A program made the position numbers and the translations under genes. A DNA stretch of 64,000 nt from Solibacteraceae bacterium (GTDB taxonomy: Bacteria > Acidobacteriota > Terriglobia > Bryobacterales > Bryobacteraceae), in the NCBI GenBank assembly GCA_021324015.1, contig JAJPJX010000042.1:1-64000 (forward strand), in the 5' to 3' direction. Positions 20,881 to 30,660 of this stretch are shown piece after piece (positions within the stretch are counted from its first letter, which is position 1; every line of letters begins with the position of its first letter). Below the pieces are notes generated by a model. The model saw only the letters and a program-made list of their open reading frames with translations. It searched no databases and was not told the origin of the DNA.

Positions 20881-21705
20881 TCACAGATCCCGGTAGCACA
20901 CCAGTTCGATGGCGTTTTCTCGCAGGGCCTGCCTCACTTCGGGGGCGGTCAGGGCGGCGAGTTCCTCTGCGCGGCTCTGTTTGAGGCGGGTGCGCGCCCG
21001 CCGCAGGTCCGTGCCCAGATGGCCGGGATGGCACATGAACTCCGTGACCCCCACGGGCAGATGGCGCAGCAACCGCACCAGTTCGGCAGCGCGGAAACGG
21101 CCCGTCATCTGGAAGCCCGCGAAGTGCTCGGTAGTGCGGCAGTGGTGGCGCTCGAGAATGTCGTGAAACCGCCGCCGCAGCAGCCCAAGGCCCCGGCTGG
21201 CCGCCCGCCTCGTCCAGGGAACGGATGCGGCTACTCCGCCCGTGAGCGGAAAATCGAACGGGCGGCGCACCCAGGGTATGCGGAAAGTCTCGGAGACCCG
21301 CGCAAGGGCTTCTAGCACGGGCGGCGCCAAATGGGTGTGCTTGTGGGTGTCGAGATGCGTGGGTTGAATGCCGGCGTCCAGAATGCGGCGCACCTGCGCC
21401 GCCATCTCGTCATACACGCGCCGCCGGCCGAGCGCCAGGGCCGCCAGCAACTCCCCCACTGTGGAGGGCAGCGCACGCTCCGGCTCCATCACCGAGCATC
21501 CGCTGATCAGCACGATGTGGCAGCCGATGTCCAGCGTGGGCGTCGCGCGCGCCAGCCGGATGGCATCGTCGAACGCTTCGCCGTTGGCCATCAGCGTGGT
21601 CGCGGTTAAAATTCCCCGGGTGTGTGCCTCCACAATCCCGGCGTTCACATCGGGCGTGAACCCGAAATCGTCGGCATTCACCACCAATTGCCTGCGGCAG
21701 GTCAA
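20881..21705 (-). CDS. hpnK: ChbG/HpnK-family deacetylase, HpnK-like
   Basis: The 274-residue YdjC-fold protein should remove an acetyl group from a sugar or a hopanoid-linked glucosamine. Metal and catalytic motifs are visible: VVNADDFGFTPDVN with the DD pair, then THLDTHKHTHLAP and the late EFMCHPGH. RPFDFPLTGG and the overall layout match the hopanoid-associated HpnK better than chitooligosaccharide deacetylases, but this is a judgement by eye. The start is a TTG whose TTGA overlaps the stop of mlaD, so it is the last gene of the mlaE-mlaF-mlaD unit. That suggests deacylation or deacetylation of a lipid handled by the Mla transporter. Confidence 0.7.
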   Translation of the reverse strand: MTCRRQLVVNADDFGFTPDVNAGIVEAHTRGILTATTLMANGEAFDDAIRLARATPTLDIGCHIVLISGCSVMEPERALPSTVGELLAALALGRRRVYDEMAAQVRRILDAGIQPTHLDTHKHTHLAPPVLEALARVSETFRIPWVRRPFDFPLTGGVAASVPWTRRAASRGLGLLRRRFHDILERHHCRTTEHFAGFQMTGRFRAAELVRLLRHLPVGVTEFMCHPGHLGTDLRRARTRLKQSRAEELAALTAPEVRQALRENAIELVCYRDL

Positions 21706-22775
21706 AAGATCGCCAGCTTGATGCGCAGGAATTTCTTGGGATTCGCCCGCATGTCTTTGGCCAGACCTTGAAATTCATGCATCGCGCCGTTGAGCGATTC
21801 GTACAACTGCGGGTTGACCACGAGTTGCCCCAGGGTGCCTTGGCCGGAGTTGATCTTGTCCATCGTGGTGTCCAGGCGGGCGACCAGGTCGTTCATCTGC
21901 TTGTAAAGGGCATCGTCCTTGAGCAGTTTGCCCGCGGTGCCCTTGCCGGAGTTCACATCCGTGACCAGGCGGCGGATCTCGGCCATGGAATTCCGGGCGT
22001 CCTCGTAGAGTTGCGGATCGTGCAGCAGCTTACCGGCCGTGCCCTGCCCCTGCTGCATTTCGGCCAGGATGGCGTCGATGCGCTTGAGCGGCGCGCGGAT
22101 TTCCTGATAGAGCGAATCATCGTAGATCAGCCGGCTGATGGTGCCTTTGCCCTGGCGGATATCGGTGAGCAACTGCTGGCTCTCGTTGGCGATGGCGTTC
22201 AGGCGGCTGTAGAGTTCCTCGTCCTTGAGCAGTTTGCCCAGGTTGCCCTTCCCGTTCTGAATGCCGCTCAGCATGCTGTCGGCGCGGTTGGAGATGTTCT
22301 GCAGTGTCTGCAGGAGGTTGGCGCTGGCCGCCATCAGTTCCGGAATGTCTTTCGCCTCCACGCTGGGCAGCTCCCCGCCAGGCTGCACGTGGACCGGGCT
22401 TTTGCCCTTGGTGATGTTGAGGAACTTGTCGCCCAGCAGGTTGGAAGCGCTGATCTCGGTCTTGGAATCCACTGGAATCTGCGGAAGGTATTCCTGGTTG
22501 ATCTCCATGCGGAACTCTACCGCGCGCACCGGGTCGCTCGATCCGGAAAGCCGGATTTTGTCGAGATTGCCGATGGTGATGCCGTTCAGGCGGACCGGCG
22601 TGCCTTCGGTCATGCCGGAGGCGTCGTCCATGTAAGTTCGCAGGATCACATAACGCTGGAAGATGCCGCCCGTGGACGTGAGCAGCAGGATCAGCGCCGC
22701 CAGAATCACCAAGGCCGTGATGGCCAGGACTCCCACCCGCAGTTGCGACCACTTTACTTTGCTAGCGCCAGCCAT
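21702..22775 (-). CDS. mlaD: MCE/MlaD-family lipid transport protein with C-terminal 34-residue repeats
   Basis: The substrate-binding, inner-membrane-anchored part of a phospholipid ABC transporter. It has 357 residues: one membrane helix (about 12-34), an MCE domain (about 42-125; GTPVRLNGITIGNL, LGDKFLNIT), then an extension. From residue 175 to the end the extension is five repeats of exactly 34 residues starting at G175, G209, G243, G277 and G311, each opening G(K/Q)GT-xGKLLxDxxLY and continuing as a predicted amphipathic helix. E. coli MlaD (183 residues) lacks these repeats, which could form a periplasmic stalk or tunnel. It starts 3 bases after mlaF. Confidence 0.85.
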   Translation of the reverse strand: MAGASKVKWSQLRVGVLAITALVILAALILLLTSTGGIFQRYVILRTYMDDASGMTEGTPVRLNGITIGNLDKIRLSGSSDPVRAVEFRMEINQEYLPQIPVDSKTEISASNLLGDKFLNITKGKSPVHVQPGGELPSVEAKDIPELMAASANLLQTLQNISNRADSMLSGIQNGKGNLGKLLKDEELYSRLNAIANESQQLLTDIRQGKGTISRLIYDDSLYQEIRAPLKRIDAILAEMQQGQGTAGKLLHDPQLYEDARNSMAEIRRLVTDVNSGKGTAGKLLKDDALYKQMNDLVARLDTTMDKINSGQGTLGQLVVNPQLYESLNGAMHEFQGLAKDMRANPKKFLRIKLAIF

Positions 22776-22778
22776 AGC

Positions 22779-23606
22779 TCATTTCTGATGCTTCACGAAC
22801 TTGGATACATACGGGTCCCGGGTCGCCTCTAACTCGTCCTGATTACCCTCAAACACCAGTTGCCCTTCGCGCATGACCAGGAAGCGGGTGCGCAAGTGCG
22901 ACTTCTCCCGGCCGTTTTGGGCGGGAATCAACCGGCCATCTTCCGGATTGTAGCGAAAATTGGCCACCAGGTTTCCGTCTTGATAGCGCTGCGTAACCAG
23001 CAGGGTGGTGGCATGGGAGACATCCCGCTCCTTGACGATCAGGGCCACGATGGTGTTGGCCGTGATCGGATCCAGACCCGCGGTGGGCGAATCGTACAGC
23101 AGCAGGGGCGGCTCGGTCACCACGGCGCGGGCGATGGCCGCGCGGCGGCGCATGCCCCCGGAGAGTTCGCTCGGGAACTTTTCGAGTGTCTGTTCGAGTT
23201 CCACGAATCGGAGCGCCTGCTCCACCCTGGGCCGTACCTCAGACGGCGGGCAATGGATGCACGCCTGGTTGACCAGAGGATAAGCCACGTTTTCCTCAAT
23301 GGTGAGGGAATCGAACAGCGCGCTCTCCTGAAACAGCATCCCGATCTTGCTGCGGATCTCGAACAATTCCTGCTCGCGCAGTTGCGAAATGTCGCGCCCG
23401 AAAACCTGCACGGATCCGCTCTCCGGCCGCAACAAGCCAAGAGCCGTTTTCAACAGCACCGTTTTGCCACTCCCGGCAGCGCCCAGAATCACCAGGGTCT
23501 CCTCCGGAAAAGCCCGGAAGGAGACCTCGCAAATGGCCGGCTGGCCCTCGAAGGCGACGGTCACCCGATCGAAGCGTAGAACGGGATTCGAGGCGTCTTC
23601 CGGCAT
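22779..23606 (-). CDS. mlaF: Mla-type ABC transporter ATP-binding protein
   Basis: This 275-residue cytoplasmic ATPase powers lipid transport with MlaE and MlaD. Walker A GAAGSGKT is at 42-49, the signature is ELSGGMRRR, Walker B and D-loop are LLLYDSPTAGLDP, and the H-loop position is a threonine/glutamine (LLVTQRYQDG) instead of the usual histidine, a departure worth noting. The aspartate-glutamate of Walker B is also altered (YDSPT where DEPT is usual); this YDxPTxGLDP form occurs in MlaF-like ATPases. The ATG at 23606 overlaps the mlaE stop (TGATG); a longer open frame upstream lies inside mlaE and is rejected. Confidence 0.85.
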   Translation of the reverse strand: MPEDASNPVLRFDRVTVAFEGQPAICEVSFRAFPEETLVILGAAGSGKTVLLKTALGLLRPESGSVQVFGRDISQLREQELFEIRSKIGMLFQESALFDSLTIEENVAYPLVNQACIHCPPSEVRPRVEQALRFVELEQTLEKFPSELSGGMRRRAAIARAVVTEPPLLLYDSPTAGLDPITANTIVALIVKERDVSHATTLLVTQRYQDGNLVANFRYNPEDGRLIPAQNGREKSHLRTRFLVMREGQLVFEGNQDELEATRDPYVSKFVKHQK

Positions 23607-24370
23607 CACGTCCCGGCCAGCCACACGAAGATCTTGGTCAGGAAGAAGGTCAGGACGAAAATCAGCACCGACGCCGCCACCACCGCTTGCGTCGTGGCGC
23701 GGCCCACGCCCTGGGTGCCGCCGGTGGTGCGCAGCCCGTAATAGCAGCCGATCAGCGAGATGATGAACGCGAAGACGAACGGTTTCAACAGGCCCTGCGC
23801 CACATCGTTCCACACCAGCGCCCGCCAGACCGTGCTCCAGTACTGCGTGGTCATCAACTTCAGGTAGAAGTACGCGATCACGTAACCGCCGAACATCCCC
23901 ACGAAGTCGGAAATAATCGTGAGCAGCGGCAGCATCACCGCCGTGGCGATGAGTCGGGGGGTGACCAGCTTCTGGATGGGGTCGGTGCCCAGGGCGCGCA
24001 TGGCATCGATCTGCTCGGTGACCTTCATGGAGCCCAGCTCGCTGGCGATGCCGGAGGAATTGCGCCCGGCCACCACCAACGCCGTCAGCACGGGGCCGAG
24101 TTCGCGCACCAGGGTAATGGAGACCAGCGTGCCGGTCTTGCCCACCTGGCCGTACTGCGCCAGCGCCCGGGACATCTGCAACGCCATCACAGCGCCGCTG
24201 AAGAATCCTGTCATGACCACAATCGGCAGGCTGCCAACTCCGATAGTGTCCATCTGTAAGAATACGTCGTCCCAGTAATGCGGCCGCCGGGCAATATTTT
24301 GCAGGGCCCGGCCGGTCAGTTGAAAGAACTCCTGGGCGGCGCTGACCGGTCCTTTCAAGAAGTCCAGCAA
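23606..24370 (-). CDS. mlaE: Mla-type ABC transporter permease
   Basis: A 254-residue inner-membrane protein with about five membrane helices. MlaE-family stretches are clear: GFFSGAVMALQ, LVRELGPVLTALVVAGR, ASELGSMKVTEQIDAM and LGTDPIQKLVTPR. It starts at a TTG (24370), preceded by GGGGAT; the first ATG in frame would remove about 40 residues that other MlaE proteins have, so the TTG is preferred. It is the first gene of mlaE-mlaF-mlaD-hpnK. I see no mlaB or mlaC here. Confidence 0.85.
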   Translation of the reverse strand: MLDFLKGPVSAAQEFFQLTGRALQNIARRPHYWDDVFLQMDTIGVGSLPIVVMTGFFSGAVMALQMSRALAQYGQVGKTGTLVSITLVRELGPVLTALVVAGRNSSGIASELGSMKVTEQIDAMRALGTDPIQKLVTPRLIATAVMLPLLTIISDFVGMFGGYVIAYFYLKLMTTQYWSTVWRALVWNDVAQGLLKPFVFAFIISLIGCYYGLRTTGGTQGVGRATTQAVVAASVLIFVLTFFLTKIFVWLAGT

Positions 24371-24868: not shown

Positions 24869-25792
24869 TTAGTGTCCTTCCGCTTCCAGAAACCGTTCTG
24901 CTTCCATGGCTGCCATGCAGCCCGCCCCGGCGGCCGTGATAGCCTGCCGGTAGACACGGTCCTGCACGTCGCCGGCATGAAAGACACCCGGGATATTGGT
25001 CCGCGCTCCGCCCTTGGAAATGATGTAGCCATCCGCGTCGGTCTCGATCTGCCCGCGGAACACGGCGGTGTTGGGAATGTGTCCGATCGCCACGAAGAAG
25101 CCGTCCACTTCCTGCTCCCAAACCGCGCCAGTCGCCAGGTTGCGCAGCCGCACACCGGTGACAAGCTGCCTTCCGATGTCCTGCACTTCCTCCACCACCG
25201 TGCTGGTCAGGAACTTGATCTTAGGGTTGCTGCGGGCGCGCTCCAGCATGATCTTGGAGGCGCGGAACTGGTCGCGCCGGTGCACCAGGGTGACCTCCGA
25301 GCCGAAGCGTGAGAGAAAGTTCGCCTCCTCCATGGCCGAATCACCGCCGCCGATGACCATGATCTTCTTCCCGCGGTAGAAAAACCCGTCGCACGTGGCG
25401 CAGGAACTGACGCCGTGGCCGATGAGCTTCTGCTCGGAATCCAGACCCAGCCAGCGTGCCGAGGCGCCGGAGGCGATGATCAGTGTGCGGGTTTCGATCC
25501 ACTCGCCTTCCACGTTCACGCGGAACGGGCGCTTCGAGAGATCGGCTTCAATGACCGCGCCGTGCATGTACTCGGCGCCGAAATTCTCAGCCTGTTTCTT
25601 GATGGCGGCCACCAGGTCCGGCCCGTTGACGCCCTCCGGAAAGCCCGGGAAATTCTCCACCAGGGTGGTCAGGGATAACTGCCCGCCGGCCTCGTGCCCG
25701 CTGACCACCAGGGGGCTGAGATTCGCGCGGGCGGTGTAGATCGCAGCCGTATTTCCCGCACACCCGGAGCCTACAATCACGACATTGCGCAT
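24869..25792 (-). CDS. trxB: thioredoxin-disulfide reductase
   Basis: A 307-residue FAD/NADPH enzyme that reduces thioredoxin. The redox pair CATC is at 131-134, the NADPH motif GGGDSAMEEANFLSRF follows, HRRD and the C-terminal GDVQDRVYRQAITAAGAGCMAA close the FAD site. The N-terminal FAD motif is GSGCAGNTAAIY where GSGPAGLTAA is normal, so C11 replaces a conserved proline. It is downstream of the iron operon on the same strand, 100 bases after the ATPase-DtxR gene and separated from it by a hairpin. Thioredoxin-like proteins accompany the related P19 iron systems, so the neighbourhood may be functional. Confidence 0.9.
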   Translation of the reverse strand: MRNVVIVGSGCAGNTAAIYTARANLSPLVVSGHEAGGQLSLTTLVENFPGFPEGVNGPDLVAAIKKQAENFGAEYMHGAVIEADLSKRPFRVNVEGEWIETRTLIIASGASARWLGLDSEQKLIGHGVSSCATCDGFFYRGKKIMVIGGGDSAMEEANFLSRFGSEVTLVHRRDQFRASKIMLERARSNPKIKFLTSTVVEEVQDIGRQLVTGVRLRNLATGAVWEQEVDGFFVAIGHIPNTAVFRGQIETDADGYIISKGGARTNIPGVFHAGDVQDRVYRQAITAAGAGCMAAMEAERFLEAEGH

Positions 25793-25892: not shown

Positions 25893-27029
25893 TCATCTCC
25901 GTTCCAGATGCGCCAGGCATCCTGGAAGATCCAACCCTGCCGATGCCCGTCCCTCGCGGCAGCAAACGCCCGCGGGAATGGGGCTCCCGTGCGGGCACTC
26001 CGTGGGGTGCCCCAAAAAGGTGCAGATGCGATCCGTGACTTCCGGGCTCAGAATATGCTCAAACGTGCAGGCGTTGGACTCCACCGAGGTTTCGTCCCGG
26101 ATCGCCAGCACGTCCATGAACAGGCGCTCGGCCAGGCGGTGCCGCCGGATCACGCTGCGCGCCCGTTCTTCCCCCGGCGGGGTAAAGCCGACGCGCTGGC
26201 CGTCGAGAACCACCAGGCCAATCCGCGCCATCTGTGCGAGCAGCTTCCGGTGCTGCGCCTCGGTAAAGTGCGCGGACTCGATGTGCTGCGCGGCCTCGCG
26301 CGCGATCCACAATTGCTCCAGCACCTCGTCGAAATCCTGGTTCTGCTCGAAGCTGAAGACCGTGGTCTCCACGATTCGCCCATGCTCAAGATCCACCCGC
26401 ACGTCGGCGCAGCGGCCCACCTGGTCGTCGTGGGTGACCATCAGGATGGTGCGGCCTTGCGCGTGGAGGTCGGTGAGCAGGTTGAGCACGATCTGCTCGT
26501 TGGGCGCATCCAGGTTGCCGGTGGGCTCGTCCGCCAGGATGATCTTGGGATCGTTGACCAGGGCGCGGGCAATCGAGACGCGCTGCTGCTCGCCTCCGGA
26601 GAGCTGGGAAGGCAGGTGTCCGGCGCGTTCGGCGAGCCCCACGCGCTCCAGGGCGCCGCGCGCCTCGGCTTCGTCGGTCATGCTGTGGAAGTACTGCGCC
26701 AGCATGACGTTCTCCAGTGCCGTGAGATGCGGCACCAGGTGAAACTGCTGGAAGACGAACCCCACGGTCTCCGTCCGGAAGCGGGCCAGTTCCGCGCGGC
26801 TGAGCGCCGAGGTCTCGACCTGGTTGATGCGCACCGCGCCGCTCGAAGGCTGATCCAGGCAGCCGAGAAGATTCAGCAGGGTGGTCTTGCCGGAGCCCGA
26901 GGGGCCCATGATGGCAATCCACTCGCCGGCCTCCACGCGCAGCGAGACTTCGTCCAGGGCCTTTACCGGCCGCCCGCCCGAGCCGTCGTACAGCTTGCTC
27001 ACCTTTTCCAGTTCGACGAAGGACGGCAT
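25893..27029 (-). CDS. ABC transporter ATPase fused to a DtxR-type metalloregulator domain
   Basis: A 378-residue two-part protein. Residues 1-225 are a LolD/MacB-type ATPase: Walker A GPSGSGKT (42-49), signature LSGGEQQR (143-150), Walker B ILADEPTGNLD (164-174), H-loop H200. Residues 232-285 look like a winged helix (DEVLEQL to RIGLVVLDGQRVGFTPPGEE). The rest matches the metal-binding and dimerisation domain of DtxR/IdeR: RRHRLAERL gives H297 and E301, NACTFEH gives C321, E324 and H325, and ECPHGSPIP (344-352) is the family hallmark; E317 stands where DtxR has H98. The frame is continuous. It ends the operon FTR1-permease-permease-ATPase, 7 bases after the second permease. The fusion suggests that iron directly gates transport or that the ATPase binds DNA. 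Confidence 0.85.
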   Translation of the reverse strand: MPSFVELEKVSKLYDGSGGRPVKALDEVSLRVEAGEWIAIMGPSGSGKTTLLNLLGCLDQPSSGAVRINQVETSALSRAELARFRTETVGFVFQQFHLVPHLTALENVMLAQYFHSMTDEAEARGALERVGLAERAGHLPSQLSGGEQQRVSIARALVNDPKIILADEPTGNLDAPNEQIVLNLLTDLHAQGRTILMVTHDDQVGRCADVRVDLEHGRIVETTVFSFEQNQDFDEVLEQLWIAREAAQHIESAHFTEAQHRKLLAQMARIGLVVLDGQRVGFTPPGEERARSVIRRHRLAERLFMDVLAIRDETSVESNACTFEHILSPEVTDRICTFLGHPTECPHGSPIPAGVCCREGRASAGLDLPGCLAHLERR

Positions 27030-27036
27030 CGTGCGT

Positions 27037-28113
27037 TCATTCTCCTCGCAGGATAATGGCCGGCCGGATGCGCCAGATGCGCGACGCCGCCAGAAGCGTA
27101 GCCGCGGCGGCCACCGCCAGGGTCACGGCCAGCACCGGCAGGAACACCGCAAAGTTTACCCCTACGGCCGCGCCGGAAAAAATCTCCCGGCCGATCCACC
27201 ACGCCACCAGCAATCCGGCTGCGTACCCGGCGATGGCGGAGCCGCAGGCCAGCAGCAGCGATTCGCACAGGAACAGCGCGCCGATCTGCCGTTCGCCGGC
27301 GCCGATGGCCTTCAGGATACCGATCTCCCGGCTGCGCTCCAGCACCAGGGCGCCGAAGTTGCTGGTGACGCAGAGCGTGGTGACGGCCAGGACCAGAGCC
27401 GTGAGCCAGAACAGCACTCCGCGGACTTGCAGCACCACGCTGGCTTCTGTCTCGGCCACGGCGTGCAGTTCGCGGACATCCGCCCCAGGGAGCGCGCGAG
27501 CGAGAGCTTCGCGCACCTGATCGAGACGCCGCCCGTCAGCGCGCACCTGAATCAGGCTCGCGCGCTCCTGAAACCCGCCCAGGCTCGCCGCGGCGGCAAA
27601 CGGCAGCAGCAGTTGGGCGTCCTCTGCTCCGCCCGTCTCCACGATGCCCCGCACCACACAGGGCGCTCCCTCCAGGGCGGCGCGGCTGCCCAGCGACAAC
27701 CGGAAGTGGGCTGCCGCGGCGGTCCCCGCGAGGCATTCCGCGGCTCCCGCCTGGCGCGCGCCCTGGACCCGCCAGTAGCCCGTGAGCCGCGCGGCGCGCG
27801 AAAAGTCCACGCCGGCCACTACCACCGGCTCGGCGTTCAGCCGGCCCACGGTGTATAGGAACGGCGCGGCAGCCGCGCCCAGGCGCTCCGCCGCGGCCAC
27901 ACCCGCCAGCGAAACCGTCTGCGCGCTGCCCTCCGGGGCGATCAGCAGATTGGCGCCGAGCCCGCGAAACTCGGCGCGCATTTTTCGTTCGATGTCCGAG
28001 TACACGCTGAACAGCGCCGTCGCCAGCGTGGCGGCCACCGCCAGGGCGGAGAAGGCCAGCAGCAGCCGGCCCCGGCGCAGCCGCACCGCTCCCCAGATGA
28101 ACCGCCAGAACAT
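27037..28113 (-). CDS. FtsX/MacB-type ABC permease, second of two
   Basis: The 358-residue inner-membrane protein has one N-terminal helix, a periplasmic domain of about 200 residues and three C-terminal helices. The FtsX-like signature LVLERSREIGILKAIGA and the end segment PAIILRGE are clear. With the ATPase and the companion permease it forms a type VII ABC transporter, which usually does mechanical work across the periplasm and does not import directly. The ATG at 28113 overlaps the stop of the upstream permease (TGATG) and has GGGAGGGGG before it; a much longer open frame upstream lies antisense-like in the other permease and is rejected. Confidence 0.85.
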   Translation of the reverse strand: MFWRFIWGAVRLRRGRLLLAFSALAVAATLATALFSVYSDIERKMRAEFRGLGANLLIAPEGSAQTVSLAGVAAAERLGAAAAPFLYTVGRLNAEPVVVAGVDFSRAARLTGYWRVQGARQAGAAECLAGTAAAAHFRLSLGSRAALEGAPCVVRGIVETGGAEDAQLLLPFAAAASLGGFQERASLIQVRADGRRLDQVREALARALPGADVRELHAVAETEASVVLQVRGVLFWLTALVLAVTTLCVTSNFGALVLERSREIGILKAIGAGERQIGALFLCESLLLACGSAIAGYAAGLLVAWWIGREIFSGAAVGVNFAVFLPVLAVTLAVAAAATLLAASRIWRIRPAIILRGE

Positions 28114-29384
28114 CAGGCCCCCTCCCGCAGCGTGACCGCCGGATCCAGGGCCAGGGAGCGGCGCAAGGGCTGTGCCGCGCCGGTCAGCGCTACCGTGATC
28201 GCCACCAGCACGGCGAGCGGCGCCAGCAGGGACGGCATTCCCGCGGAAACGTGGAAAACCGCGCGGCCCACCCAACGGGCCAGCGCCCCTCCGGCCAGCG
28301 CGCCTAGCAATCCGCCGGCGGCCCCCTCGACGCTCACCTCCGCCGCGAACAACGCCGCCACCAGCCAGTCCGGTGCGCCCACAGCCTGCATGATGCCTAT
28401 CTCCGTGCGCCGCTCCAGCACGGTCGCGGCCATCACGCTCCACACCGTTAACCCGGCTGAAGCCAGCGCCGCCAGGGCGATCAGCCACATCAGCCCGCGG
28501 ACCTTTTCCAGCACCCGGCCTTCGCTATCGGCCACGCGCCACACGGGTTTGGCCACGGCCATGGGCAGCGCCTCCTCGATCTGGTGCGCGATGGAGCTCA
28601 CATACGGGGTGCAATACCAGCGGTCGTACTCGGCGGGCGTCATCCGCGCCGGATCCTTGCGGGCGAATTCGTCCTCCGGCTTGGTGAGCGCGCCCACCTG
28701 CACGGCATCCACCTGCCCGAGGCGCCCGGTGAGCCGCTGCAGCACCTCCAGGCGCACGTAGAGCCGATCTTCCTCTTCGCCGCCGGTGGAAACGATCCCC
28801 GCCACCGTGAAGGGCTCGCCGAACAGCGTCACCACCGAGCCGGGCGAGAGAGCCAGGCGCCGCGCCAGGGCCGCGCCGGCCAGGCACTCGCGCGCCTGGT
28901 CGTTGCGTTCGCGGTCCTCCACCCAGTGGCCGCGGATGTGCCAGGCGGGATTCAGCGCCCGCAGCCCGGTCTCCTGCGCGGAGCCGTCCGGGGCGCGATA
29001 CCGGCGCGCGAACCAGACTCCGTCCACCGGTACGCGCCGGCCTTCGATCGTGGCTGCGGCGTGCAGGGCGGGCGCAAATCCGGTGATGTTCAGTTGCCAG
29101 AAGGTCGCCTTGATTTTTGGCACCTGTGCCTCGGGAATGTAATTCTCCCGGGTCACCGGGCGGTAGTCGATGCCCCCGATCTGTACCGGCAAAGAAGTGC
29201 TTCGCGGCGTGACCACCAGGTTAGCGCCCAGGCTGCGAAGTTCACGGTTGACACGGTCGCCCACCTCCAGCATGGCGCCGAGCATGGCGGTGGCCACGGC
29301 GGTCCCCAGGGCCACGGCCGCCACCGTCATGGCCTTGCGCCGCGGCGAGCGCCGGATGGACTGGCTCACGAAACGCAGGAACAT
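28113..29384 (-). CDS. FtsX/MacB-type ABC permease, first of two
   Basis: A 423-residue permease with an N-terminal helix (about 18-38), a large periplasmic domain (to about 290) and three C-terminal helices. The FtsX signature is TVLERRTEIGIMQAVGA and the C-terminus is PAVTLREG. The periplasmic part contains DEFARKDPARMTPAEYDRW and is longer than in the partner, so the pair should form a heterodimer. Its ATG follows the FTR1 stop with no gap (TAAATG). The gene pair corresponds in position to Cj1661/Cj1662 of the Campylobacter P19 iron locus. Confidence 0.85.
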   Translation of the reverse strand: MFLRFVSQSIRRSPRRKAMTVAAVALGTAVATAMLGAMLEVGDRVNRELRSLGANLVVTPRSTSLPVQIGGIDYRPVTRENYIPEAQVPKIKATFWQLNITGFAPALHAAATIEGRRVPVDGVWFARRYRAPDGSAQETGLRALNPAWHIRGHWVEDRERNDQARECLAGAALARRLALSPGSVVTLFGEPFTVAGIVSTGGEEEDRLYVRLEVLQRLTGRLGQVDAVQVGALTKPEDEFARKDPARMTPAEYDRWYCTPYVSSIAHQIEEALPMAVAKPVWRVADSEGRVLEKVRGLMWLIALAALASAGLTVWSVMAATVLERRTEIGIMQAVGAPDWLVAALFAAEVSVEGAAGGLLGALAGGALARWVGRAVFHVSAGMPSLLAPLAVLVAITVALTGAAQPLRRSLALDPAVTLREGA

Positions 29385-30647
29385 TTACGGGCCCGGCGCG
29401 CGGAAGTAGCGGGTCCCGGCCAGCAGCTTGTCCGCCGGCACCACCAGTTGATCACCCTCCACCCGGGATTCCAGGGGAATCGGATTACATCCGCCCGCTT
29501 GCCCCACCGAGGGAATGAAAATAGCCGAGGCGCAGTTCTTGCAGATGACGTTGGGGCCCTTCTGATAGTAGCCCTGGTTGCCGCAGATCTGGCAGGCGTC
29601 AAAGGCGGCCACCAGCGTCTGGTCCGGTTTGCGCAGCACGATGATGCGCACCGTCGCGCCATCCGCCTCCACGGCGAAGCGGTGCAGGTTGCCGTCGTTC
29701 ACCTGGGCCACGGGAATACGCACGGCCCCGGAAACCACCGAAACCGGCACGGCGGCGGAAAGCGCGGTGGCCGACTGCGCGTAAATAAACTCCGCCGTGA
29801 TCGCCAGAATGAAAAGCGCGGTGGCCGAGCAGGAGGCCATCATCCACAACCTCTCGCGCCGCGCCGTCCAGCGGGCTTTGCGCAGAGCGGGGCCTTCCAG
29901 GCCCGCGATGGACAGAACCCGGCGGCGCCGCCACTCCATCAGCAGCATGGCGCCGGCCAGGGACAAAATCGCCACGAAAAAGAACACGTCGTTGCGCACG
30001 ATAGGCCCGATGAGCGCCATCTCTTCCCGGCTGCTGGGCAGCACCTGGCTTTCCGAGAGCTCGTGTAGCCCGGTAAGCAGCAGTTGCGCCACCACCACCA
30101 TGAGGATCACCGTGGTGATGCGGAAAAACTGGCCCAGATCGACCCGGATGGTGCCCCGCACGAAGCTCACGCCGAACAGGACCGCCAGCCCCAGTCCCGC
30201 CGCCGCCCCGAACAGTTCCATCAGGCCGGAGGTGTCGAAACGCACCGCGGCGAGCATGAGGACCGTTTCCACGCCTTCGCGGAAAATCATCAGGAAGACG
30301 AATAGAAATACTCCCCAGGCGGCCGCGGAGGAACCGGCTTCTTTTTGCAACTTGCTTTCAATTTCGGCTTTCACCCCGCGCGCGTGGCGGTTCATCCACA
30401 GCACCATGGAAAGCACGAAAGCGGCGCTGGCCACCAGCACCCATCCCTCGTAGGCGTCCTCCCCTACCTGCAACTTGGCAAACAGCCAAGCCACTGCAAA
30501 GCTCGCAATTACAGCCGCCAGGAAGGCCCTGTGTACCGAGCCCAGAAGGTCCCGCCGGCCGGTTTTTCGGAGGTAGGCGATGGTAATGGCGACCACCAGG
30601 GCAGCCTCCACCCCCTCGCGCAGGGTGATGACGAGTGTCTGCAACAT
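29385..30647 (-). CDS. FTR1-family iron permease fused to a DUF2318 cysteine domain
   Basis: A 420-residue membrane protein, first in the iron operon. Residues 1-240 are an FTR1/EfeU-type permease with about seven helices and both iron-binding REGxE motifs (REGVE at 10-14 and 123-127). After a linker and one more helix (about 268-290) comes a DUF2318-type domain with C352-x2-C355, C369-x2-C372 and C387 within QICGNQGYYQKG and NPIPLESR. In Campylobacter these are two separate proteins (Cj1658 and Cj1660). The cysteine domain could bind or reduce iron before it enters the permease. A palindrome covers its start codon. Confidence 0.9.
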   Translation of the reverse strand: MLQTLVITLREGVEAALVVAITIAYLRKTGRRDLLGSVHRAFLAAVIASFAVAWLFAKLQVGEDAYEGWVLVASAAFVLSMVLWMNRHARGVKAEIESKLQKEAGSSAAAWGVFLFVFLMIFREGVETVLMLAAVRFDTSGLMELFGAAAGLGLAVLFGVSFVRGTIRVDLGQFFRITTVILMVVVAQLLLTGLHELSESQVLPSSREEMALIGPIVRNDVFFFVAILSLAGAMLLMEWRRRRVLSIAGLEGPALRKARWTARRERLWMMASCSATALFILAITAEFIYAQSATALSAAVPVSVVSGAVRIPVAQVNDGNLHRFAVEADGATVRIIVLRKPDQTLVAAFDACQICGNQGYYQKGPNVICKNCASAIFIPSVGQAGGCNPIPLESRVEGDQLVVPADKLLAGTRYFRAPGP

Positions 30648-30654
30648 GGTTGCA
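30640..30654. promoter_or_regulatory. perfect inverted repeat over the FTR1 start codon, candidate operator
   Basis: TGCAAC-ATG-GTTGCA is a perfect 6-bp inverted repeat with a 3-base centre, and that centre is the start codon of the FTR1 gene read on either strand (CAT/ATG). It lies just downstream of a TTGACA promoter element. The position fits a repressor site or an RNA structure that hides the start codon. It does not match the classical DtxR box. Confidence 0.45.
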
Positions 30655-30660
30655 ACTAGC

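What the first reader, a model, noticed from the sequence alone, without database searches (positions are those of the whole stretch)
25893..27029. ABC ATPase fused to a complete DtxR-type metalloregulator
One continuous frame carries a LolD/MacB-type ATPase and then a winged helix plus the DtxR/IdeR metal-binding domain, with H297, E301, C321, E324, H325 and the CPHG-x-PIP motif all in place (seen). DtxR proteins are normally free repressors (known). Fusing one to the motor of the transporter it might regulate suggests a protein that senses intracellular iron and directly gates ATP hydrolysis, or that leaves the membrane to bind DNA, or a regulator tethered at the transporter (inference). E317 replaces the ancillary-site histidine, so metal choice may differ from DtxR.
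Basis: partly seen in the sequence, partly recalled or inferred. Interest (0 to 1): 0.85.

Follow-up and report, generated by a model that had tools for sequence, protein, structure and literature searches.

The report
Iron sensor fused to transporter ATPase
In soil Acidobacteria the ATP-burning motor of an iron-uptake machine carries a built-in iron-sensor domain descended from a gene repressor that seems to have lost its DNA-reading part, so it probably senses cell iron and switches the transporter rather than a gene.

Summary
The fusion is real: one 378-aa frame on the MINUS strand (25893-27029), a LolD/MacB-type ABC ATPase (1-224) joined to a DtxR-fold domain (225-357). It recurs in 81 other full-length ORFs from the best 80 of 210 database hits plus near genomes. 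FTR1-FtrD and two MacB/FtsX permeases precede it in 68 of 81; the 13 misses have under 2.7 kb upstream. "Complete DtxR" is wrong: the Pfam HTH model matches 6 of 56 fused copies, weakly, against 21 of 22 ordinary DtxR proteins; helix2-turn-helix3 identity is 0.15 against 0.33 at matched metal-domain identity, while helix 1 and the metal ligands are kept. The nearest relatives are free proteins (sensor + FeoA domain) directly downstream of feoB (35 of 38) with the same erosion; fused copies form one clade nested among them. Transcription looks like Fur's job elsewhere in the family. Best reading: an iron sensor that lost DNA reading, first paired with FeoB, then grafted onto an ABC ATPase to gate it, as in MetN/ModC. 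Gating is inferred, not shown.

The parts
25893..27029 (-). 378-aa fusion protein: ABC ATPase + DtxR-fold metal-sensor domain
26358..27029 (-). ATPase (residues 1-224), LolD/MacB/FtsE type; Walker A GPSGSGKTT, LSGGEQQR, ILADEPTGNLD and H200 present, catalytic columns invariant or nearly so in 49 aligned copies
   Evidence: fold match MacB NBD 5lj9 Z 33.2
26295..26351 (-). helix 1 of the DtxR fold (residues 227-245), two residues after the last ATPase strand (218-224); carries E235 (DtxR M10 / MntR D8 position) and E238 (MntR E11 position)
26214..26294 (-). eroded helix-turn-helix (residues 246-272), shortened, unmatched by PF01325
25974..26183 (-). metal-binding/dimerisation domain (Fe_dep_repr_C, residues 283-352) with H297, E301, E317, C321, E324, H325, C336, C345
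25959..25964 (-). C356-C357 of the P-x-G-x-CC motif, invariant in the fused (56) and FeoB-linked (38) copies compared, absent from the 21 ordinary DtxR proteins compared
27037..28113 (-). second MacB/FtsX permease (the listed ORF runs to 28488; the start near 28113 is inferred from domain position)
28113..29384 (-). first MacB/FtsX permease
29385..30647 (-). FTR1 iron permease fused to FtrD-like domain
30639..30655 (.). inverted repeat TTGCAAC-CAT-GTTGCAG over the FTR1 start codon; the only place in the genome with <=1 mismatch to TTGCAACNNNGTTGCAA, but the reversed control pattern also has one place; candidate operator, reader not identified

Best explanation
The C-terminal domain is a cytosolic iron sensor of DtxR descent that no longer reads DNA and instead regulates the transporter to which it is attached. 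Shown by sequence: the ATPase, helix 1 and the metal sites are kept, the DNA-reading helices are eroded, the module is related to a FeoB-linked protein, and it sits in an FTR1 operon. Inferred: when Fe(II) is plentiful it binds between helix 1 (E235, E238) and the core (H297, E301, E317, C321, E324, H325); the resulting movement of helix 1, which begins two residues after the last strand of the ATPase, together with dimerisation of the two sensor domains of the ATPase pair, holds the ATPases in an unproductive arrangement. This stops the MacB/LolCDE-type machine that energises FTR1-FtrD iron uptake. Fur-family repressors handle transcription of the operon. The sign (inhibition at high iron rather than activation at low iron) is by analogy with MetN and ModC.
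For: Operon: 68 of 81 fusion loci have FTR1, two permeases and the fusion in order; the 13 misses have under 2.7 kb upstream. HTH loss: PF01325 at E <= 1 in 6 of 56 fused (best 0.013), 9 of 38 FeoB-linked (best 6.5e-4), 21 of 22 ordinary DtxR (best 1.9e-21), while PF02742 matches all. At metal-domain identity 0.50-0.65, helix2-helix3 identity is 0.15 (bootstrap 0.13-0.17) fused, 0.15 (0.13-0.17) FeoB-linked, 0.33 (0.30-0.36) ordinary; helix 1 is alike, 0.47-0.52. Ligands in 56 fused copies: C321 56, E301 56, E324 55, H325 55, H297 50, E235 49 E + 5 H + 2 D, E238 52. Fold: the C-terminal model (pLDDT 88) matches DtxR at Z 17.9, rmsd 1.7 over 125. Origin: fused copies are one clade (SH-aLRT 97) nested in FeoB-linked ones, which have feoB directly upstream in 35 of 38, a FeoA domain in 38 of 38, and no separate FeoA found in the fetched loci. 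Fur control in relatives. Precedents, passages seen: MetN C2 and ModC trans-inhibition (PMC10710835); FeoA contacts the FeoB G domain and stabilises its GTP state (PMC8980893); fetB, fetC and fetD, the matching ABC transporter of C. jejuni, are needed for growth at low iron (PMC10783030).
Against: No biochemistry. The relative placement of ATPase and sensor is not resolved (full model pTM 0.60), and no dimer could be modelled. The eroded HTH is not random (0.15 against 0.045 shuffled), and among closer fused copies it is conserved (0.47 at metal identity 0.7-0.8). VIA-align superposes 125 of the model's residues on DtxR 3-139, so the backbone still roughly follows the HTH although helix 2 is not assigned (pLDDT about 69 there). 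One genus (g34) runs the same operon without the domain, so it is dispensable. H297 is Gln in 5 of 56 fused copies. The operator in the window itself is not the Fur box seen in relatives, and its reader is unknown.
Confidence: 0.6

Rival explanations
1. It is a YtgCR-like tethered or cleaved autoregulator: the C-terminal part still binds DNA (perhaps after proteolysis) and represses its own operon when iron is high.
For: Permease-DtxR fusions exist in Chlamydia and are reported in 11 phyla, with cleavage and iron-dependent repression (PMC5599777 passages). The window's inverted repeat over the FTR1 start is the only such place in its genome, which would suit a one-operon autoregulator (the reversed control also has one place). 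HTH residues are conserved among closer fused copies. In genus g34 both the domain and the family's usual operator are gone.
Against: HTH matched in only 6 of 56 fused copies, weakly; helix 2 not assigned in the models. The operator follows a Fur paralogue rather than the domain: G360 has operator and this Fur but no sensor domain, and the operator also precedes the fur gene in G124 and G296. In other classes a fur gene directly precedes FTR1 in 12 of 18 regions (three of the 12 confirmed by Pfam). In G249 the window-type operator precedes the same gene pair that carries the other operator type in G113.
Confidence: 0.13
2. The domain is an iron (or Fe-S/zinc) relay or chaperone: it receives the imported iron on its many Cys/His/Glu ligands, or passes electrons, rather than switching the ATPase.
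For: Four cysteines beyond the DtxR site, C336, C345, C356, C357, are invariant in 56 of 56 fused copies and in 38, 36, 38, 38 of 38 FeoB-linked ones; many relatives add a His/Cys-rich insert in the wing. Both partners, FeoB and the FTR1 system, import iron.
Against: Retention of helix 1 with its two ligands and of the dimerisation fold is what a metal-driven switch needs and a chaperone does not; FeoB-linked copies carry a FeoA domain, described in one study as a modulator of FeoB's G domain.
Confidence: 0.17
3. The domain is only a structural dimerisation tail that stabilises the ATPase pair; its metal site is structural.
For: DtxR C-terminal domains dimerise (established knowledge); the domain can be lost without loss of the operon (7 unfused ATPases read).
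Against: A structural metal site does not explain why the module's relatives are free proteins beside feoB, nor the kept helix-1 ligands.
Confidence: 0.08

Closest known systems
DtxR/IdeR/MntR iron and manganese repressors (e.g. PDB 2qq9, 7b24)
   Same: Fold (Z 17.9, rmsd 1.7, 125 aligned); primary and ancillary metal ligands; DtxR-type Cys at position 102; CPHG-x-PIP.
   Different: HTH eroded; E at the M10 position plus an MntR-like E11 (E235, E238); E instead of H98; extra invariant C336, C345, C356, C357; no SH3 domain; fused to an ATPase.
Chlamydia YtgCR (ABC permease-DtxR fusion)
   Same: A DtxR-type domain at the C-terminus of a metal ABC transporter subunit in an iron uptake operon (passages of PMC5599777).
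   Different: Here fused to the ATPase, not the permease; different ABC class (MacB/LolCDE type beside FTR1); DNA-binding part degenerate, whereas YtgR binds DNA.
MetN C2 and ModC C-terminal regulatory domains (trans-inhibited ABC importers)
   Same: Substrate-sensing domain C-terminal to the ATPase, bridging or restraining the two ATPases (passages of PMC10710835).
   Different: Different fold; here the sensor binds metal and the ABC part probably energises a neighbouring permease; regulation not shown.
Campylobacter jejuni fetMP-fetABCDEF
   Same: FTR1-family permease, DUF2318 protein (recalled to be the Pfam FtrD-like family), two ABC permeases and an ATPase, iron-regulated (passages of PMC6083913 and PMC10783030).
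   Different: FTR1 and FtrD are one protein in the window; no P19/FetP or thioredoxin was searched for or noticed; the ATPase carries the sensor.
FeoA-FeoB fusion of Bacteroides fragilis
   Same: A small cytosolic module affects the nucleotide hydrolysis of an iron importer (passages of PMC8980893); FeoB-linked relatives of our domain carry FeoA.
   Different: No metal-sensor domain; [quoted passage not shown]

Membership tests
DtxR family of metal-dependent repressors | Fe_dep_repr_C metal-binding/dimerisation domain | tested here: met
   PF02742 E 4.5e-26; 56 of 56 fused copies
DtxR family of metal-dependent repressors | N-terminal winged-HTH DNA-binding domain (PF01325) | tested here: not met
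   No match at E <= 10 in residues 225-361; 6 of 56 fused copies at E <= 1, against 21 of 22 controls. The fold as a whole still superposes on DtxR 3-139
DtxR family of metal-dependent repressors | Metal-dependent binding to an operator | not testable with these tools
   No binding assay; indirect evidence points to Fur
YtgCR-type transporter-repressor fusions | DtxR domain fused to the permease subunit | tested here: not met
   Fused to the ATPase
YtgCR-type transporter-repressor fusions | Proteolytic release of the repressor | not testable with these tools
   No experiment; only two residues between the last ATPase strand and helix 1 in the model
ABC ATPase of the LolD/MacB/FtsE group | Intact Walker A, signature, Walker B, H-loop | tested here: met
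   Invariant columns K48, S144, G146, D167, E168, H200 in 49 copies
fetMP-fetABCDEF-type iron system | FTR1 permease, FtrD-like domain, two MacB/FtsX permeases and an ATPase in one gene row | tested here: met
fetMP-fetABCDEF-type iron system | P19 periplasmic iron-binding protein and thioredoxins in the cluster | not tested
   No P19 or thioredoxin profile was run; six window proteins were scanned and none is either
Trans-inhibited ABC importers (MetN C2 / ModC kind) | C-terminal domain on the ATPase that binds the transported substrate | tested here: inconclusive
   Domain and conserved metal ligands present; binding not measured
Trans-inhibited ABC importers (MetN C2 / ModC kind) | Substrate binding lowers transport/ATPase | not testable with these tools
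   Needs biochemistry

The most novel reading that the evidence does not exclude
A metalloregulator gave up reading DNA and became an iron-responsive gate of membrane iron importers: first as a partner of the FeoB GTPase (sensor plus FeoA docking domain), then, by one fusion in Acidobacteriota, as a domain of an ABC ATPase that powers FTR1 iron uptake. It would be a shared iron brake for a GTPase and an ATPase machine, possibly with a second Cys site (C336, C345, C356, C357) that reads Fe-S or redox state as well as Fe(II).
Probability: 0.48. Interest if true: 0.85.

Novelty: new variant of a known kind. Interest (0 to 1): 0.7.

Why it matters
How bacteria stop iron import quickly, before repression and protein turnover take effect, is poorly known; a review of transporter switching that I searched for passages describes MetN and ModC for ABC importers and does not contain the word DtxR. 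Here one sensor module appears with two unrelated iron importers, so its role can be tested twice, and a genus that lost the module is a natural control. It also suggests that some genes annotated 'metal-dependent transcriptional regulator' next to feoB (e.g. Pelobacter propionicus) may not be DNA-binding regulators.

Tried and rejected
Assembly artefact or frameshift: rejected, since the fusion recurs in 81 other full-length ORFs from many assemblies. The sensor as a plain DtxR repressor: rejected on the HTH tests. A DtxR or MntR box before FTR1: none above shuffles (DtxR 0 of 58 at >=13 of 19 against 1.0 expected; MntR 23 of 58 against 24.5). E. coli-type Fur box in the window's own promoter: not found (9 of 19).

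The first control for the Fur-box count (letter shuffles, 1.1 expected) was too weak; with permuted palindromes the mean is 2.9 of 58 and 5 of 200 permutations reach 38, so the count alone does not identify Fur; the fur-linked sites carry that point. My first idea, that loss of the operator in genus g34 together with the domain shows the domain to be its reader, was tested and not upheld: G360 keeps operator and Fur without the domain, and the Fur orthologue is not among the g34 Fur hits compared (two weak Fur hits, L271 and L279, were not compared). A longer version of the window operator gave no site in the genome; the shorter one gave one place, as did its reversed control. My first script to pick Fur proteins chose wrong frames and was redone. 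The full-length model's fold searches were filled by ATPases, so the C-terminal part was modelled alone. Distribution outside Acidobacteriota was only probed in plasmids: 35 records, one of the FeoB-linked kind followed up, Pelobacter. Paper searches, all in the open PMC library. No title or abstract start in those listings shows an ATPase-DtxR fusion; that is no proof of absence from print. Papers: passages only were seen of PMC6083913, PMC5599777, PMC8980893, PMC10710835, PMC10783030; the rest only as listings.

Full report
OBSERVATION. The frame 25893-27029 lies on the minus strand and codes 378 residues without a stop. Pfam finds ABC_tran at 25-170 and Fe_dep_repr_C at 283-352; NCBIfam ranks MacB, LolD and FtsE models first for the ATPase, all below their curated cut-offs. 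Upstream on the same strand are FTR1 fused to an FtrD-like domain (29385-30647) and two MacB/FtsX permeases (28113-29384; 27037 to about 28113). The nearest named relatives are Bryobacterales and other Acidobacteriota assemblies, so the genome is probably of that order (inference).

IT IS A FAMILY. One scan of genome contigs gave 210 relatives, of which the best 80 were kept; their titles name Acidobacteriota groups. From these and the near genomes 83 full-length ORFs were extracted (two being the window's own copy) and aligned with the query. Of the 81 others, 68 have FTR1 and two separate permease stretches upstream on the same strand; all 13 without FTR1 have less than 2.7 kb of upstream DNA. 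A profile of the C-terminal 137 residues was run on 396 Acidobacteriota genomes; the 30 loci it returned hold 22 fused proteins (own included) and 8 free ones.

THE DNA-READING PART IS ERODED. Three sets were compared: 56 fused, 38 free FeoA-bearing ('FeoB-linked'), and 22 ordinary DtxR proteins, the last drawn from weaker hits of the same profile plus the genome's own free DtxR (L002). The Pfam HTH model matches 6 of 56, 9 of 38 and 21 of 22 at E <= 1, with best E-values 0.013, 6.5e-4 and 1.9e-21; the metal-domain model matches all. For pairs with metal-domain identity 0.50-0.65, identity over helix2-turn-helix3 is 0.15, 0.15 and 0.33, with bootstrap ranges 0.13-0.17, 0.13-0.17 and 0.30-0.36; helix 1 is alike in all (0.52, 0.47, 0.49); leaving out the fused copies with an insert in the wing gives 0.14. 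Shuffled segments give 0.045, so some constraint remains, and closer fused copies share the segment (0.47 at metal identity 0.7-0.8). Mean net charge of the segment falls from +1.1 (ordinary) to -0.7 (fused) and -2.5 (FeoB-linked). AlphaFold models (full length pLDDT 83, pTM 0.60; C-terminal part pLDDT 88, pTM 0.83) show helix 1, then a loop at 246-256 where helix 2 of DtxR would be, then the remaining helices and the wing strands. The C-terminal model still superposes on DtxR 3-139 (Z 17.9, rmsd 1.7, 125 aligned), so the fold is DtxR's; what is lost is the HTH sequence and the assigned helix 2.

THE SENSOR PART IS KEPT. In the 56 fused sequences: E301 56, C321 56, E324 55, H325 55, H297 50, E317 46, E235 49 (+5 His, 2 Asp), E238 52. 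By the alignment and the start points of the structural superpositions (model 4 on DtxR 3; model 5 on MntR 2), E235 sits at the place of DtxR Met10 and MntR Asp8, and E238 at MntR Glu11 (ligand names recalled). Thus helix 1, which begins two residues after the last ATPase strand, keeps two ligands. Four further cysteines, C336, C345, C356 and C357, are invariant in fused copies (56 of 56) and occur in 38, 36, 38 and 38 of 38 FeoB-linked ones, but in 1, 2, 0 and few or none of 21 ordinary ones; they may form a second metal or cluster site (inference). Many relatives carry an insert with the pattern HxHK...NPCHD in the wing.

WHERE IT CAME FROM. The free relatives carry a FeoA domain (38 of 38) and lie directly downstream of feoB on its strand, within 260 bp, in 35 of 38; L150 and L151 do not, and L212 ends at a contig end. 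One of the 35 is on a Pelobacter propionicus plasmid, outside the phylum, annotated 'metal-dependent transcriptional regulator'. No separate FeoA was found in these loci with a profile that recognises 18 of 23 ordinary DtxR FeoA domains, so a divergent one could be missed. In the window's own genome feoB is preceded by a FeoA-like frame, read by eye. In a tree of 115 rows (147 columns, quick method, rooted on the ordinary set) the fused copies are one clade (SH-aLRT 97) nested among FeoB-linked ones; many other forks are unresolved. Genomes G172 and G416 hold both forms. So one fusion event, with loss of the FeoA domain, is the simplest history.

WHO CONTROLS TRANSCRIPTION. In 58 upstream regions of FTR1, 38 have a palindrome close to a Fur box, 30 of these beginning 31-60 bp before the start (limits of that count under Tried and rejected). 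In six genomes of family f4 with the fusion the site occurs at one to three places, and one precedes FTR1 in each; in G124 and G296 another lies 118 and 126 bp before the match of a fur gene. That Fur is 62-81% identical among these six genomes and G360; the best identity to it among the g34 Fur hits compared is 34%, and in the seven g34 genomes searched the site is absent. G360 has site and Fur but no sensor-domain hit, which separates the two. In other classes a frame with the Fur C-terminal motif directly precedes FTR1 in 12 of 18 regions, 10 of the 15 with the fusion; three of the 12 were scanned and match Pfam FUR (E 1.8e-20 or better). In the window the corresponding element is TTGCAAC-CAT-GTTGCAG at 30639-30655; near relatives have TTGCAAC with a second half-site at the same place. 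It is the only place in the genome within one mismatch, but the reversed pattern has one place too, so rarity proves nothing. In G249 this type of site precedes a gene pair that carries the other operator type in G113. Its reader in the window is not known; a Fur-family protein is likely (two in the genome).

NATURAL LOSS. Of 52 FTR1-FtrD matches (E <= 2.8e-57) among the 396 genomes, 22 have the fused domain close by. Seven others were read and have an ATPase that ends after the ATPase domain (six of genus g34 at 59-63% identity to ours, and G330); G239 has a remote, decayed version of the domain; G360 has no ATPase next to the permeases; six end at contig ends; fifteen g34 genomes were not read but have no profile hit of the fused kind.

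MECHANISM. Shown by sequence: intact ATPase, kept metal ligands, eroded DNA reader, descent from a FeoB-linked protein, iron operon, Fur-type control in many relatives. From passages of papers: C-terminal domains of MetN and ModC sense substrate and block transport (PMC10710835); FeoA binds the FeoB G domain and stabilises the GTP state (PMC8980893); the corresponding fetBCD genes of C. jejuni are needed for growth at low iron although the transporter's substrate is unclear (PMC10783030; PMC6083913). Inferred: iron binding moves helix 1 and/or the sensor dimer and thereby slows the ATPase, a fast brake beside Fur's slow one. The sign and the dimer geometry are not shown.

COMPARISON. Transporter-DtxR fusions as such are known: YtgCR in Chlamydia, with orthologous permease-repressor fusions reported in 11 phyla (passages of PMC5599777). 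Those are permease fusions with a working repressor. An ATPase fusion with a degenerate DNA-binding part and FeoB-linked relatives did not appear in my paper searches (listed under Tried and rejected), which cover open-access papers only. I therefore call it a new variant of a known kind.

Noticed in passing
window 24869-25792 (-): Thioredoxin-reductase-like flavoprotein gene (Pfam Pyr_redox_2) about 100 bp downstream of the fusion gene; a relative is found in 15 of 81 fusion loci. It might feed electrons to the FtrD-like domain.
   Followed up: partly
L021-L082, wing of the sensor domain in many copies: Insert of about 30 residues rich in His and Cys (HxHK...NPCHD) in the wing, absent from the window's group; possible extra metal site.
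   Followed up: no
L171 (genome G239): ATPase with a remote, decayed version of the domain: CPHG kept, the usual Cys/Glu/His site apparently lost.
   Followed up: no
L225-L242 and L244, upstream of FTR1 in genus g34: Where the sensor domain is lost, promoters share a different palindrome of the form GACnAATTTAGTC (8 of 19 by a strict pattern), resembling Rrf2/IscR-type sites (recalled); the operon may have changed its regulator.
   Followed up: partly
L248 and L300: An outer-membrane-like protein plus cytochrome c gene pair (read by eye) has the FTR1 operator types upstream in G113 and G249; a possible co-regulated unit.
   Followed up: partly
window 21702-24370 (-): Mla-type lipid transport cluster: MlaE permease (E 4.2e-79), ABC ATPase, MlaD protein (E 4.5e-16).
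   Followed up: partly
L166 (genome G330): Unfused ATPase of the same operon type with a short Cys/His tail (DACPNCGMNLFKKHEHQQ) instead of the sensor domain.
   Followed up: no
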